38,881 nt of DNA from Pseudomonadota bacterium (GTDB lineage: Bacteria > Pseudomonadota > Gammaproteobacteria > SURF-13). Made by a program: the position numbers and the translations under genes. Position 1 is the first letter of the stretch; every line of letters starts with the position of its first letter. Location: contig JAQBXX010000010.1 in NCBI GenBank assembly GCA_027624315.1, positions 1-38,881 on the forward strand. Reading direction: 5' to 3'. Of this stretch, positions 16,302 to 24,157 are shown piece by piece. The notes below the pieces were generated by a model, which had not been told where the DNA came from, ran no database searches, and saw nothing but the letters and a program-made list of their open reading frames with translations.

Positions 16302-16724
16302 TCAGCGACCCTTTTTGCGCAGACGCTGGATGGTCTGCAACTGCGCCACGGCCTCGGCCAGTTCGGCCTGCGCCTTGGCGTAGTCGAAGTCGGACTTGCG
16401 GTCGCGCATCGCCTGCTCGGCGTGCTGCTTGGCCTCCAGTGCGGCGGCCTCGTCCACATCGTGCGCGCGCAACGCGGTATCGGACAGAATGGTGACGACG
16501 TGCGGCTGGATTTCCAGTATGCCGCCGGAGACGTAAAACACCTGCTCGTCGCCATCTGGAATTTTCACGCGCACCTCGCCCGGCCGGAGGGTGGTGAGCA
16601 GCGGCGTATGGCGCGGCAGAATGCCGACCTCGCCCTGCGAAGCGGGGGCGAACACCATCTCCGCCAGACCGGAAAAGATTTCCGCTTCAGCGCTCACGAT
16701 ATCGAGATGCAGAGTCATAGCCAT
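16302..16724 (-). CDS. atpC: F-type ATP synthase epsilon subunit
   Basis: Epsilon is part of the central stalk of F1 and can inhibit ATP hydrolysis. The 140-residue protein starts [13 protein letters not shown], has [21 protein letters not shown] in the N-terminal beta-sandwich, and ends in two helices ([15 protein letters not shown] onward). ATG 16724 fits the family; extending the frame upstream to 16763 would translate the repeat. It is the last atp gene, followed by glmU. Confidence 0.95.
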
Positions 16725-16739
16725 AACTATAAACAACCT

Positions 16740-16877
16740 AACGCAAAGACGCCAAGACGCCAAGATATTCGTTTAGTCAAAATGTATCTAGCCATAATTT
16801 ATATTTGAGCGTACCCAATTTGTGCCGCTATTTGATTACTCTAATTTTAGAGCTTTGCGTCTTGGCGTCTTTGCGTT
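16740..16877. repeat. hairpin of 8-nt tandem repeats, atpD/atpC gap
   Basis: Arms at 16740-16764 and 16853-16877 pair at 24 of 25 bases. Each is made of three units of the type ACGCAAAG or ACGCCAAG. The loop of about 88 bases is AT-richer than its surroundings and has no gene I can support. The structure fills most of the spacer between atpD (ends 16889) and atpC (starts 16724). Confidence 0.8.
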
Positions 16878-16888
16878 TAGTCTTTCCT

Positions 16889-18286
<1,398 letters not shown>

Positions 18287-18307
18287 TCAAATTAAAATTA
18301 GTTAACG

Positions 18308-18379
18308 AGTGGCGAGTGGCGAGTTGCTAGTGGCGAGGAAATACATTTCCTAGTTACTCGCCACTCGCTACTCGCTACT
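18308..18379. repeat. hairpin of 7-nt tandem repeats, atpG/atpD gap
   Basis: Arms 18308-18342 and 18345-18379 pair at about 28 of 35 bases with a two-base loop. Both arms are tandem heptamers of the type GAGTGGC or GAGTAGC. It occupies most of the atpG/atpD spacer (18269-18389). Confidence 0.8.
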
Positions 18380-18389
18380 GTATTTAAAC

Positions 18390-19250
18390 TTAAACCGCCG
18401 CCGCGCCGGCCACGATTTCCGACAGCTCCTGCGTGATGCCTGCCTGGCGCGCCTTGTTGTAGACCATCTGCAGATCGCCAATCAATTCGCCCGCATTATC
18501 CGAGGCGCTCTTCATCGCCACCATGCGCGCCGCCTGTTCGGAGGCGATATTCTCCAGCACGCCCTGATACACCAGCGACTCGACATAGCGCGTGAGCAAA
18601 TGGGTCAGCACCTCTTTGGCCTCGGGCTCGTAGAGGTAGTCCCAATGATGATGCAGCGTTGCATCCATATCGGGCACGACGGGCAGCATCTGCTGCAGCG
18701 CCGGCTTCTGCACCATGGTGTTGACGAAATCGTTATAGACCAGATAGAGGCGGTCGATGTGCGCGTTGTTGTAGGCATCCAGCATCACCTTCACCGCACC
18801 GATCAGGTCGGTGAGGCTGGGCGCATCACCCAAGTGTGATTTCTCCGCCACGATGTTGCCGCCGAAGCGCTTGAAGAACCCCCCCGCCTTGGTGCCGACG
18901 GTGCACACATCCACCTGCACGCCCTGCGTGCTCCAGTCGCGCATCGCGACTAGCGCGGTGCGGAACAGGTTGCTGTTCAGGCCGCCGCACAGCCCGCGGT
19001 CGGAGGACACGATAATAAAGCCGACGCGCTTTACTGCGCGCTCCTGCAAGTAAGGATGCTTGTACTCCGGGTGCGCGTGCGCCAGATGGCCGATCACGTT
19101 ACGCATCTTGGCGGCATAGGGGCGCGCGGCGCGCACGCGCTCCTGCGCCTTGCGCATTTTCGAGGCCGCAACCATCTCCATCGCACGCGTGATCTTCTGC
19201 GTGTTCTTGATGCTCTTGATCTTGGTGCGTATTTCTTTTTTGCTGCCCAT
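18390..19250 (-). CDS. atpG: F-type ATP synthase gamma subunit
   Basis: Gamma is the rotating central shaft of F1. The 286-residue protein starts [20 protein letters not shown], has [15 protein letters not shown] in the Rossmann-like middle part, and the conserved C-terminal helix [20 protein letters not shown]. Normal length. It lies between atpA and atpD on the minus strand. Confidence 0.97.
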
Positions 19251-19277
19251 CTGGTTACCTTGGCTGCTCTAACGACT

Positions 19278-19354
19278 CAACGTTAAGGCGCAAAGGCGCA
19301 AAGACGCAAAGAAAAAATAATTTTAGTTCTTTGCGTCTTTGCGCCTTAGCGTTG
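19278..19354. repeat. hairpin of 8-nt tandem repeats, atpA/atpG gap
   Basis: The left arm (19278-19313) contains three octamer units of the type GCGCAAAG or ACGCAAAG; the right arm (19327-19354) is complementary but has two. The outer CAACG and TAAGGCGCAAAG parts and the inner ACGCAAAGAA match. The unit sequence is close to the one in the atpD/atpC gap. Confidence 0.78.
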
Positions 19355-19361
19355 GATGTTA

Positions 19362-20903
19362 TTACCAAGCATTGCTCTTCTTGAATTCCGTCAGCGCGGA
19401 GCGCAGGTCGCTCTCGATCTCGCTGCTGTAATCGCCCGTGGCATTGATCTTGTCCATGAGGGCGGCATGCTTGGACTTCATGAAGCTCAGCAGTGCGTGT
19501 TCGAAGCCCTGAATCTTGGCCACCTCGACGTCGTCGAGGAAGCCCTGGCTGGCGGAGAACAGCGACACCGCCAGTTCCGCCACGCTCATCGGCGCGTACT
19601 GTTTCTGCTTCATCAACTCCATCACGCGCTGACCGCGCTCCAGTTGCTTGCGCGTGCTCTCGTCGAGGTCGGAGGCGAACTGCGCGAACGCCGCCAGTTC
19701 GCGGTACTGCGCGAGGTCGAGGCGCACGCCGCCGCCCAGTTTCTTGATGATCTTGGTCTGCGCCGCGCCACCCACACGAGACACGGACAGGCCGGCGTTG
19801 ATGGCGGGCCGGATACCGGCGTTGAACAAATCGGTTTCGAGGAAGATCTGGCCGTCGGTGATCGAGATCACGTTGGTGGGCACGAAGGCCGATACGTCGC
19901 CGGCCTGCGTTTCAATGATGGGCAGGCCGGTGAGCGAGCCGGTCTTGCCTTTCACCTTGCCGTTGGTGATTTTCTCGATGTGCTCCGCGTTCACGCGCGC
20001 AGAACGCTCCAGCAGGCGCGAGTGCAGATAGAACACGTCGCCCGGATACGCCTCGCGGCCCGGCGGGCGGCGCAGCAACAGCGACACCTGGCGGTAGGCC
20101 CAGGCCTGCTTGGTCAGATCGTCGTACACGATGAGCGCGTCTTCGCCGATGTCGCGGAAGTATTCGCCCATGGAGCAGCCGGAGTAGGGCGCGATGAACT
20201 GCATCGCGGCGGAGTCCGACGCGGTGGCGGTCACCACGATGGTGTGCGCCAGCGCGCCGTGCTCTTCGAGCTTGCGCACCACGGCGGCGACCGACGAGGC
20301 CTTCTGGCCGATGGCGACGTAGACGCACTTCACGCCCGTGCCTTTCTGATTGATGATGGTGTCCACCGCCACCGCGGTCTTGCCGGTCTGACGGTCGCCG
20401 ATGATGAGCTCGCGCTGACCGCGGCCGATCGGCACCATCGCGTCGATGGCCTTGAGGCCGGTCTGCACCGGCTGGCTCACCGACTGGCGCGCGATCACGC
20501 CCGGCGCGACTTTTTCAATCGGCGAGGTCTGCGTGGTCTTGATCGGCCCCTTGCCGTCGATGGGGCTGCCGAGCGCATCCACCACGCGGCCCAGCAGCGC
20601 CTCGCCCACCGGCACTTCCAGAATGCGGCCGGTGCACTTTACGCTGTCGCCTTCGCTGATGTGTTCGTAATCGCCGAGCACCACCGCGCCGACCGAGTCG
20701 CGCTCAAGGTTGAGCGCCATGCCGTAGGTGTTGCCGGGAAATTCGATCATCTCGCCCTGCATCACGTCGGACAGACCGTGTACGCGCACAATGCCGTCGG
20801 TCACCGAGACCACGGTGCCTTCGGTACGCGCCTCGGTGAGCACCGCGAAATTCTCGATGCGGCTCTTGATCAAATTGCTGATTTCTGAAGGGTTGAGCTT
20901 CAT
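19362..20903 (-). CDS. atpA: F-type ATP synthase alpha subunit
   Basis: Alpha forms the hexameric head with beta and holds the non-catalytic nucleotide sites. The 513-residue protein starts [16 protein letters not shown] and has the P-loop [46 protein letters not shown] and the family end [12 protein letters not shown]. Length is the same as in E. coli. It lies between atpH and atpG on the minus strand. Confidence 0.98.
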
Positions 20904-20954
20904 GTAAGCTTCCTCAATAGTTACTTAAATTCTGTTAGCGGATCGGGATGCCGG

Positions 20955-21491
20955 TCAACGCGCCAGCACTTGCGCGAGCTTCGCGATCTGGCTGCGCACG
21001 GAGCCGTCGATGACGCGGTCGCCGGTGCGGATCACCGCGCCGCCCAGCAGGCGCTTATCCACCACACTGGAGAGGCTGATCTCGCGCTGCATGCGCAACT
21101 TCAGCGCTGCGGATATATTGTGTTCTTCGTCACTGGAAAGCGGAAAGGCCGACGTCACTTGCACCTTGAGTACGCCCTCTGCCTCGGCGCGATTCGCCTC
21201 ATACAACGCGGCGATCTCCGGCAGCAGCGCCAGCCGTCCGTTTTCGACCACCAGCCGGATGAAGTTTTGCTCGGCGCTGCTCAGCTTGTCGCCGCAAATT
21301 TCCAGCACCAGCTCCGCCAGTTGGGTCTTGTGTACGCGCGGGTGGCCGATGAGCCTGCGCAGGGCAGGGTCGGCCGCCACGCTCACGGCGAGCACCAGCA
21401 TCTCCGACCAGCGCTTCAGGTCGCCGTGCGCTTGCGCCAGCTCGAATACGGCTTGCGCATAGGGACGGGCTGCGGTGATTTTTTCGGCCAT
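20955..21491 (-). CDS. atpH: F-type ATP synthase delta subunit
   Basis: Delta (OSCP) ties the peripheral stalk to the top of F1. The 178-residue protein starts MAEKITAARPYAQAVFELA and ends with the conserved VDKRLLGGAVIRTGDRVIDGS and VRSQIAKLAQVLAR. Normal length. Spacers to atpA (51 bases) and atpF (26 bases) are short and lack the tandem-repeat hairpins found further downstream. Confidence 0.96.
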   Translation of the reverse strand: MAEKITAARPYAQAVFELAQAHGDLKRWSEMLVLAVSVAADPALRRLIGHPRVHKTQLAELVLEICGDKLSSAEQNFIRLVVENGRLALLPEIAALYEANRAEAEGVLKVQVTSAFPLSSDEEHNISAALKLRMQREISLSSVVDKRLLGGAVIRTGDRVIDGSVRSQIAKLAQVLAR

Positions 21492-21517
21492 GGGCGTGCG
21501 GTGCCTGGATTAAATTA

Positions 21518-21988
21518 TTAAATTTCGGCGACCAGATGCTTCAGCAGGTCGCTGTGCGCCTTGGCGTCAATCTCGCGGCCCAGAATCTTCTCTGCACCGC
21601 TCACGGCAATCGCCGCCACCTGCGTGCGCAGCTCGGTCTTGGCGCGATTCACCTCCTGCTCAATCTCGGCCTTGGCCCCGGCGATGATGCGCTCACCCTC
21701 GGCGCGCGCATTGCCCTTGGACTCTTCCACGATTTCGCTGGCGCGGCGCTCGGCCTGCGCGAGGATCTCGGCGGACTGGGTCTTCACCTTGTGCAGCGCT
21801 TCTTTGGCGTGCTTCTCGGCGAGCTCCAGATCGTGACGTCCCTTTTCACCAGCGGCGAGGCCGTCGGCGATGCGCTTCTCGCGCGCCTGCATCATCGCGG
21901 TCAGCGGCCCCCACAGCAGGCGATTGACGAACCAGATGAGCAGGATGAAGGCCACGATCTGGCCAAACAGGGTAGCTGTAATATTCAT
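21518..21988 (-). CDS. atpF: F-type ATP synthase b subunit
   Basis: The b subunit is the peripheral stalk: an N-terminal membrane helix and a long cytoplasmic coiled coil. The 156-residue protein starts [20 protein letters not shown], followed by [20 protein letters not shown] and charged helical sequence to the end ([18 protein letters not shown]). Normal length. It lies between atpE and atpH on the minus strand. Confidence 0.96.
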
Positions 21989-22033
21989 GCGCTTCTCACT
22001 CGATCAAGCTGAATAGATTTGAAGCTTAGGACG

Positions 22034-22324
22034 TCAGCCCGCCGCGCCGATAGCCGCCTGGAGCGCACCCACGAACGGGTTGGCGAACAAGAACCACATG
22101 CCGAAGGCGAGAATGATGAACGGGAACGACTCCATCAGGCCCGCGAAGATGAACATGTTGGTCATCAGCGCCGGGCGCATCTCGGGCTGGCGCGCGATGC
22201 CTTCCAGCGTCTTGGCGCAGATCAGGCCCCAGCCGATGGCAGAACCCAGACCGGCGGCGGCGAGAATCACGCCCACGCCGACGGCGGTGTAGGCATAAAT
22301 CATTGCAATCATGTCAGGTGTCAT
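22034..22324 (-). CDS. atpE: F-type ATP synthase c subunit
   Basis: The c subunit forms the rotor ring of Fo. The 96-residue protein has two hydrophobic helices joined by the polar loop RQPEM (Arg45-Gln46-Pro47). Glu65 in GLMESFPF is the expected proton-binding carboxylate; its surroundings show no obvious sodium-site signature, so proton coupling is inferred. A GGAG site precedes the ATG. Unusually it is the first atp gene left: atpB and atpI, which should lie immediately upstream, are replaced by an insertion sequence whose end is 36 bases from this start codon. Confidence 0.97.
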   Translation of the reverse strand: MTPDMIAMIYAYTAVGVGVILAAAGLGSAIGWGLICAKTLEGIARQPEMRPALMTNMFIFAGLMESFPFIILAFGMWFLFANPFVGALQAAIGAAG

Positions 22325-22360
22325 TTGCAGTTCTCCTAAAAGTAATAGTTCAAATTAATA

Positions 22361-23195
22361 GGTAATTAGGGCGAAACGTAACCAAAGTAGAGTTTAATGA
22401 AGCGTTTGAACAGATTCTCTTTCCGGTGATTATAGCGGTACTCGATTTCCTTAAGATACAGGGGAAAGTGATACTTGGAAACACCCCGGTAGTTGTACAA
22501 GATATGCTTGGCATAACTCCAAAAGCCTTCAATGCCGTTGATGTGGTTTTTGGTGCGTCTATCCACCAGTGACTTGGAGTGATTAACCGTATGATGCTTC
22601 CCGTAGCGTTTGAGGGACTGATAGCCCCGGAAGGCATCGGTGTAGTAGACCGAGCCCTTGCGGGTTTTGGCCCGAATGTGGCGCATCAGCTCCTCGGCGG
22701 TAACGGACTCCACGACCTGGGTGTACACCCGCCCATCCCGCTCCAGGAGGCCAAATACCACGCTTTTGCCCGCCGCTCCCCGGCCTCGCTTGCCCTTACG
22801 CCTACCGCCGAAGTAGGCCTCGTCCAGCTCGATCTCACCCTTGAGCTTGCCACCCTCCAGTTCAGTGACGTGGTACAGCGCCTCTCTCAGACGCTGGTAG
22901 ACACGGGTGACCACCTTGATGTCCAGTCCCAAGTCCTGGGCCAACCGATAGGCCGGTTGCAGTTGATAGAAGCCTCTCAGCAGAGCGATTTCACGGCGCA
23001 GGCGGGTGAGACTTTTGGCCTTGCCGCACTGAGCGCATTTGACGTAGCTGCGGCCAGTCTTGCAGACCTTGAAAGAACCGCAAAACACACACTTGCGGCC
23101 CCGCAAAAAGTTGGCCGCACAACTGAAATGGCTGTTTTTCCCAGTAACCATGCGTATCTCCCAGTATACGATGGTTACGAAACGCCCTAATTACC
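22361..23195 (-). mobile_element. IS1595-family insertion sequence upstream of atpE
   Basis: An 835-base element bounded by 24-base inverted repeats (22361-22384 and 23172-23195) that differ only at three central bases (AAA versus TTT when both are read inward). It encodes one full-length transposase in the same direction as the atp genes. IS1595-family elements usually make 8-base target duplications, but the flanks here are AATTAATA and TTGAAAAA, which do not match. The element sits where atpB should be, so its two flanks probably did not belong together originally. Confidence 0.88.
22366..23151 (-). CDS. IS1595-family transposase
   Basis: The 261-residue transposase has a zinc-ribbon (Cys21, Cys24, Cys39, Cys42), a helical region, and an ISXO2-like catalytic domain with Asp110 (ELDEAYFGG), Asp172 (YYTDAFRGY) and Asn205/Glu208 (HINGIEGFWS), in line with the IS1595 family. 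No frameshift or internal stop is seen, so it may be active. The stop codon lies within the terminal inverted repeat. The N-terminus is somewhat shorter than many relatives. Read-through from its promoter would run directly into atpE. Confidence 0.88.
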   Translation of the reverse strand: MVTGKNSHFSCAANFLRGRKCVFCGSFKVCKTGRSYVKCAQCGKAKSLTRLRREIALLRGFYQLQPAYRLAQDLGLDIKVVTRVYQRLREALYHVTELEGGKLKGEIELDEAYFGGRRKGKRGRGAAGKSVVFGLLERDGRVYTQVVESVTAEELMRHIRAKTRKGSVYYTDAFRGYQSLKRYGKHHTVNHSKSLVDRRTKNHINGIEGFWSYAKHILYNYRGVSKYHFPLYLKEIEYRYNHRKENLFKRFIKLYFGYVSP

Positions 23196-23226
23196 TTGAA
23201 AAATGGCGGCACATCCATGTGCCACA

Positions 23227-23253
23227 GGAATCTCTGAATAAATCAGAGATTCC
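23227..23253. repeat. perfect hairpin GGAATCTCTGA/TCAGAGATTCC
   Basis: Eleven-base perfect arms with loop ATAAA, 31 bases outside the insertion sequence. It is followed by CAAAACAAGGCGTG, which recalls but does not complete the core of the foldback elements. It may be a remnant of another repeat. Confidence 0.55.
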
Positions 23254-23332
23254 TTATCATAGTGACGCAAAACAAGGCGTGTTTTAGGGCATCTACTTTT
23301 GGTTACGCTCAATATGGAGAATAGCACGGTAG

Positions 23333-23411
23333 GGCGCATTAGGCAGGAGCCGTAATGCGCCGGATGTTTCAATGTAGAGCCATTCGGCGGGTTACGCTGC
23401 GCTAACCCGCC
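23333..23411. repeat. two REP-like palindromes between IS and ttcA
   Basis: GGCGCATTA/TAATGCGCC at 23333-23361 and GGCGGGTTA/TAACCCGCC at 23386-23411, the second followed by CTACG and the first preceded by GTAG. Such GTAGGG-flanked palindromes are widely dispersed in gammaproteobacterial genomes. The whole stretch 23196-23419 holds only repeats and no gene that I can support. Confidence 0.65.
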
Positions 23412-23419
23412 CTACGAAG

Positions 23420-24157
23420 TTACGCTGTACTTTGGCCGGCCATCAGCGGCTTGAGCGTGGTGAGCAGGCTCTTGAACAGTCCTTTGTTGGTGCCCTCTTC
23501 CCCGGCGAGCAATTCCTTCAGGTGCTGGCGCTGCATCGGCATGCTGAAGCAGGCGGGGCAGTTGTCGAGGATCACGGGCAGGTGCGCGGCGGTGGCGAAA
23601 TCCCTGAGTTGGCGTTCGCGCGCGTACACCAGCGGGCGGATCACGCGCACATCGCCTGCGTCGTTCAGATAGTGCGCCTGCATGGTGCGCAGCTTGCCGC
23701 CGTGAAATGCGGACATGAGAAAGGTCTCGGCGAGATCGTCCAGATGCTGCGCCAGCGCGAGCACGTTGTAGCCCTGCTTGCGCGCGGTGTCGTACAGCAC
23801 GCCGCGCTTCATGCGCGAGCAGTAGGCGCAGAACGAATCGTTGTCCATGTTCTGTTTGGCCTGTTCCATGATCGCCTGGCTGCGGTAAAAATACGCCACG
23901 CCCAGATCGCTCATCACCTGCTTGAGCGGCGACGGGTCGAAGCCTTCGACTTGCGGGTCCACGGTCACGGTGCCGAGTTCGAGGCGCACCGGCGCACTGC
24001 ACTGAAAGTGCAGGAGAATATGCAGCAGCGACAGCGAATCCTTGCCGCCGGAGACGCCGAGCAGCACGCGGTCGCCCTCGCGGATCATGTCGAAGTCGGC
24101 AATCGCCTTGCCCACATGGCGCAGTAACGGCTTGGGTGGTTTTTGTGGTGTGTGCAT
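23420..24157 (-). CDS. ttcA: tRNA 2-thiocytidine(32) synthetase TtcA
   Basis: TtcA thiolates cytidine 32 of tRNA using ATP and an iron-sulfur cluster. The 245-residue protein has the PP-loop LLGVSGGKDSLSLLHIL, the cysteine pair in CAYCSRMKRG, and a later cysteine motif (NCPACFSMPMQRQ) where the family has its third cluster cysteine. It is shorter than E. coli TtcA and matches the compact form. Other TtcA/TilS-like PP-loop enzymes are possible but the two cysteine motifs favour TtcA. It is divergent from the next gene across a 108-base gap. Confidence 0.88.
   Translation of the reverse strand: MHTPQKPPKPLLRHVGKAIADFDMIREGDRVLLGVSGGKDSLSLLHILLHFQCSAPVRLELGTVTVDPQVEGFDPSPLKQVMSDLGVAYFYRSQAIMEQAKQNMDNDSFCAYCSRMKRGVLYDTARKQGYNVLALAQHLDDLAETFLMSAFHGGKLRTMQAHYLNDAGDVRVIRPLVYARERQLRDFATAAHLPVILDNCPACFSMPMQRQHLKELLAGEEGTNKGLFKSLLTTLKPLMAGQSTA

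What the first reader, a model, noticed from the sequence alone, without database searches (positions are those of the whole stretch)
22325..23420. ATP synthase operon lacks atpB and atpI; an IS without target duplication stands in their place
Seen: the operon runs atpE-F-H-A-G-D-C, and upstream of atpE there is an 835-base IS1595-family element, then repeats, then ttcA. Established: in gammaproteobacteria atpI-atpB normally lie directly before atpE, and subunit a (AtpB) is essential for proton flow. The 8-base flanks of the IS (AATTAATA, TTGAAAAA) do not match, although the terminal repeats are nearly intact. Inference: recombination between two IS copies moved or deleted the left part of the operon, or the assembly joined two contigs through an IS. 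If real, the operon has lost its native promoter, and the IS, which is read in the same direction, may now drive it.
Basis: partly seen in the sequence, partly recalled or inferred. Interest (0 to 1): 0.72.

Follow-up and report, generated by a model that had tools for sequence, protein, structure and literature searches.

The report
Assembly mis-join through a repeated IS
The ATP synthase operon only looks as if it had lost atpB: the gene is intact on another contig of the same genome that stops inside the same mobile element, so two copies of that element were very probably spliced together during assembly, and the finding is ordinary.

Summary
atpB and atpI are not lost. They lie intact on contig C34 of the same genome (atpZ-atpI-atpB), which ends 67 bp inside the same IS. 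The 8 bp before the IS there, TATTAATT, exactly repeat the atpE-side flank of the window copy. The IS therefore inserted between atpB and atpE with a normal 8-bp duplication, 36 bp upstream of the atpE start. The ttcA-side half belongs to a second insertion, within a dispersed intergenic repeat between a DUF2007 gene and ttcA; the other half of that repeat ends contig C1. In a genus relative, C34 and the left part of the window are contiguous over 64 kb, and C1 and the right part over 38 kb; both breaks fall at the IS. The other two copies with both ends found (TSDs TTGTTTTG, TTTTCTTT) pair correctly, match relatives' gene order, and were left open by the assembler. The one traversed IS is the discordant one. 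Best reading: misassembly (about 0.9). A real IS-IS inversion is not formally excluded (about 0.07).

The parts
22034..22324 (-). atpE (F0 subunit c), first gene of the operon part present in the window
   Evidence: NCBIfam NF005363 and TIGR01260 above cut-off; 100% protein identity in G001/G004
16302..21988 (-). atpF-H-A-G-D-C, rest of the operon
   Evidence: NCBIfam equivalog hits for b, delta, alpha, gamma, beta, epsilon
22353..22360 (.). Site A flank AATTAATA (TATTAATT on the operon strand): one copy of the 8-bp duplication; the other copy is at the end of G000:C34 after atpB
22361..23195 (-). IS1595-family element, 835 bp. Drawn in the contig as one copy, but its two ends carry the flanks of two different insertions
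22361..22389 (.). IS terminal inverted repeat, 3' end of the IS, facing atpE
   Evidence: begins GGTAATTAGGGCG
23167..23195 (.). IS terminal inverted repeat, 5' end of the IS, facing ttcA
22366..23151 (-). IS1595 transposase, 261 aa, intact
   Evidence: NF033547 E 4.2e-44; PF12762 E 7.3e-32
23196..23203 (.). Site B flank TTGAAAAA: half of the duplication of a second insertion; the partner falls in the gap between C1 and C18 (inferred)
23196..23261 (.). Right half of a dispersed ~165-bp palindromic intergenic repeat; the left half of such a copy is the end of G000:C1 (65955-66034)
23206..23225 (-). Terminator-like hairpin plus T-run inside that repeat, downstream of ttcA and before the IS
   Evidence: 2 such sites found, 1.5 expected, so weak
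23323..23416 (.). Two further short dispersed repeats (GTAGGGCGCATTAGG..., GGCGGGTTACGCTGCGCTAACCCGCC)
   Evidence: many hits to query 1304-1347 and 1360-1399 in relatives
23420..24157 (-). ttcA-like tRNA thiolation gene; its native downstream neighbour is the DUF2007 gene at the end of contig C1
   Evidence: NF007972 E 9.8e-62, below that model's cut-off

Best explanation
Contig C18 (the window) joins halves of two different copies of one IS1595-family element. Shown: copy A inserted between atpB and atpE with an 8-bp duplication (TATTAATT). Its upstream half, with atpZ-atpI-atpB, is the end of contig C34; its downstream half is window 22361 leftwards. Copy B lies between the DUF2007 gene (end of contig C1) and ttcA (window 23196 rightwards), inside a dispersed intergenic repeat. 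Inferred: the assembler collapsed the at least five near-identical copies and walked from one half of A into one half of B. The real order is then atpZ-atpI-atpB-[IS, same direction]-atpE-F-H-A-G-D-C, one complete operon with an 835-bp co-oriented insert 36 bp upstream of the atpE start. It keeps the atpE ribosome-binding site and is presumably still transcribed by read-through from the native promoter.
For: One intact atpB at C34:26601-27278, E 1.6e-54, after atpI and atpZ. C34 ends 67 bp inside the IS with flank TATTAATT, identical 8 of 8 to the atpE-side flank. TSD pairing holds for every other copy with both ends found: C15/C24, C1-left/C9, and C76/C33 in relative G007. The relative G004 has C15 next to C24 (C81 about 6102/6109) and C1-left next to C9 (C72 5190/5194). 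G003 contig 22 runs C34 into the left part of the window (25150-69386, then 69381-88947), and G003 contig 21 runs C1 into the right part (89559-67192, then 67173-51619). Relatives have atpB directly before atpE and DUF2007 directly after ttcA. C1 ends in the left half, and the window continues with the right half, of one repeat.
Against: No reads or coverage are available, so the join itself is not directly disproved. Real recombination between copies A and B would leave the same half-junctions. Why the assembler crossed this one copy is not explained. The 3' half of copy B was not found in any contig.
Confidence: 0.9

Rival explanations
1. A real homologous recombination (inversion) between IS copies A and B. 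The operon is physically split, atpZ-I-B lies elsewhere next to an IS, and atpE-C follows ttcA and an IS.
For: The contig as deposited shows it. Near-identical IS copies can recombine, and mixed TSDs are the classic mark of this.
Against: The join appears in no relative examined; both sides are native elsewhere. It is the only IS copy crossed in the assembly and the only discordant one; the correctly paired copies were left open. Splitting an essential operon away from its upstream genes would probably be costly (inference).
Confidence: 0.07
2. The deposited genome comes from a mixed population holding both arrangements.
For: The close relatives are records titled MAG, and IS inversions can be polymorphic.
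Against: Nothing specific; low contamination value for G000 (0.38).
Confidence: 0.02
3. atpB was truly lost from this genome, or the operon was always without it.
For: None beyond the window.
Against: Single intact atpB on C34 with matching TSD; atpB-atpE order in G003 and G004.
Confidence: 0.01

Closest known systems
IS1595 family of insertion sequences (elements annotated ISEc69 and ISAba36 among the nearest in plasmids)
   Same: DDE_Tnp_IS1595 transposase, terminal repeats starting GG, single gene, 8-bp duplications (PMC8101967)
   Different: At most about 45% protein identity to the best-listed plasmid-borne members, so a distinct element; no difference in kind
Contig breaks and false joins at multicopy IS elements in draft assemblies (general knowledge)
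   Same: All other copies end contigs 66-79 bp inside the IS; one copy is crossed with discordant flanks
   Different: No read data here to show the false join directly
F-type ATP synthase operon atpI-B-E-F-H-A-G-D-C
   Same: Complete gene set and order once C34 is placed before the window
   Different: An IS lies between atpB and atpE; an atpZ-like gene (PF09527) precedes atpI

Membership tests
IS1595 family | DDE_Tnp_IS1595 transposase domain | tested here: met
   PF12762 110.9 bits against cut-off 27; NF033547 151 bits against cut-off 75
IS1595 family | 8-bp target duplication (PMC8101967) | tested here: met
   Three pairs in G000 and one in G007, all 8 of 8; 3 or more matches arose in 94 of 200,000 composition-matched simulations
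IS1595 family | Terminal inverted repeats beginning GG (stated in PMC8101967 for the related Merlin elements) | tested here: met
   GGTAATTAGGGCG at both ends, 83% complementary over 30 nt
IS1595 family | N-terminal zinc finger (all subgroups but IS1016) | tested here: inconclusive
   CVFC...CAQC is visible in the translation, but no Pfam zinc-ribbon hit at E 0.001
Complete F-type ATP synthase operon | atpB (subunit a) present in the genome and originally next to atpE | tested here: met
Assembly mis-join through a repeat | Join lies in a multicopy repeat and its two sides have other native neighbours | tested here: met
Assembly mis-join through a repeat | Reads do not support the join | not testable with these tools
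   No reads available

The most novel reading that the evidence does not exclude
The join is real: an inversion between two IS copies split an essential ATP synthase operon, leaving atpE-F-H-A-G-D-C to be transcribed from inside the IS or beyond it, while atpZ-I-B stays with the native promoter.
Probability: 0.07. Interest if true: 0.35.

Novelty: not a real feature. Interest (0 to 1): 0.08.

Why it matters
It corrects a claim that an essential operon lost a gene, and it shows a quick check that needs no reads: pairing the 8-bp duplications of all copies of an IS across contig ends detects wrong joins. The one biological residue, a co-oriented IS sitting between atpB and atpE, is a modest curiosity about transcriptional read-through in an essential operon.

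Tried and rejected
Loss of atpB: rejected, since a single intact gene is on C34. An IS-borne promoter driving atpE: no sigma-70-like site in 21900-23420 (0 found, 1.0 expected), so unsupported. Finding the 3' half of copy B: a search for the IS 3' terminus with up to 1 mismatch found only C9, C18 and C24; C1 ends about 22 bases of repeat short of where the window resumes it. GC skew of the two sides of C18 (-0.015 and +0.054) differs in sign but is confounded by gene strand and was not used. Literature searches for IS insertions inside atp operons and for IS-caused chimeric contigs gave nothing I used.

Full report
Observation. On the minus strand the window carries atpE (22034-22324), atpF, atpH, atpA, atpG, atpD and atpC, with family hits for each. 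Upstream of atpE is an 835-bp element, 22361-23195. It encodes an intact 261-aa IS1595 transposase read in the same direction as the operon and has inverted ends 83% complementary over 30 nt. Its plus-strand flanks are AATTAATA and TTGAAAAA, which do not match.

atpB is present. A search of the genome the window comes from (1.43 Mb, 53 contigs; the window is contig C18) found one atpB, intact and covering nearly the whole Pfam model, at C34:26601-27278. It is preceded by atpI (PF03899) and an atpZ-like gene (PF09527). C34 ends 67 bp inside the same IS, at its 5' end, directly downstream of atpB. The 8 bp before the IS there are TATTAATT. On the operon strand, the 8 bp after the IS on the atpE side of the window are also TATTAATT. 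This is an ordinary 8-bp target duplication; [quoted passage not shown] Joining the two flanks gives an empty site that aligns with the uninterrupted atpB-atpE spacer of relative G003, which has a single TGTTGATT at that place.

The other half belongs elsewhere. The window side facing ttcA begins with TTGAAAAATGGCGGC, the right half of a dispersed ~165-bp palindromic repeat with many copies in this genome. The left half of such a copy is the very end of contig C1 (65955-66034), next to the genes DUF2007, TPR and trkH. In the relatives L012/G004, L013/G005 and G003, the DUF2007 gene directly follows ttcA. So a second IS copy sits inside a repeat between DUF2007 and ttcA. Its 3' half falls in the unassembled gap between C1 and C18, where two multicopy sequences meet (inference; one search found no further 3' end).

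Synteny. Against genus relative G003, C34 matches contig 22 from 25150 to 69386, and the left part of the window continues from 69381 to 88947. C1 matches contig 21 from 89559 to 67192, and the right part of the window continues from 67173 to 51619. Both breaks in the window's gene order coincide with the IS.

Control. At least five IS copies exist in G000 (five distinct 5' ends). All ends except those in C18 stop a contig 66-79 bp inside the element. Every 3' end found pairs with exactly one 5' end by its 8-bp flank: C34/C18, C15/C24 and C1-left/C9. A pair in the same-family genome G007 behaves likewise. In 200,000 simulations with the same base composition, three or more matches arose 94 times. 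The pairs C15/C24 and C1-left/C9 are immediate neighbours in relative G004. Flank pairing therefore recovers native neighbours. The assembler left the true pairs open and crossed only one copy, and that crossing is discordant in both flanks and gene order.

Conclusion. The window is most likely a mis-join through a collapsed IS. The real operon is inferred to be atpZ-I-B-[IS]-E-F-H-A-G-D-C. The IS lies 36 bp upstream of the atpE start, is co-oriented, and leaves the ribosome-binding site intact. No promoter-like site was seen in the element; two terminator-like sites were found in the region against 1.5 expected. Continued read-through from the native promoter is the default expectation, not shown. 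A true inversion between the two copies gives the same half-junctions and can be excluded only with reads; given that the crossed copy is the lone discordant one, I put it at about 7%.

Noticed in passing
window 23196-23261; G000:C25 2495-2669, C4 6781-6944, C8 932-1090 and others: A dispersed ~165-bp palindromic intergenic repeat (hairpins GGAATCTCTGA...TCAGAGATTCC and CATTTTTCAAATACTTACGTATTTGAAAAATG), more than a dozen near-full copies in this 1.43-Mb genome and pieces in relatives; looks like a non-autonomous (MITE-like) element or a terminator-bearing repeat.
   Followed up: partly
window 23323-23416: Two more short dispersed repeats between the IS and ttcA, shared with many gammaproteobacterial relatives; the ttcA 3' end differs from close relatives just where they begin.
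   Followed up: no
G000:C33 end (L005): A fifth IS 5' end with flank AAATATTA whose 3' partner was not found in any contig.
   Followed up: no
L003 127-278 (G000:C24 start): A ~150-bp sequence (query 47-198) present in dozens of copies in relative G004 and several in G003: another high-copy intergenic repeat of this genus.
   Followed up: no
L095 1831-2067 (G000:C34): An atpZ-like gene (PF09527) precedes atpI at the start of the atp operon.
   Followed up: no
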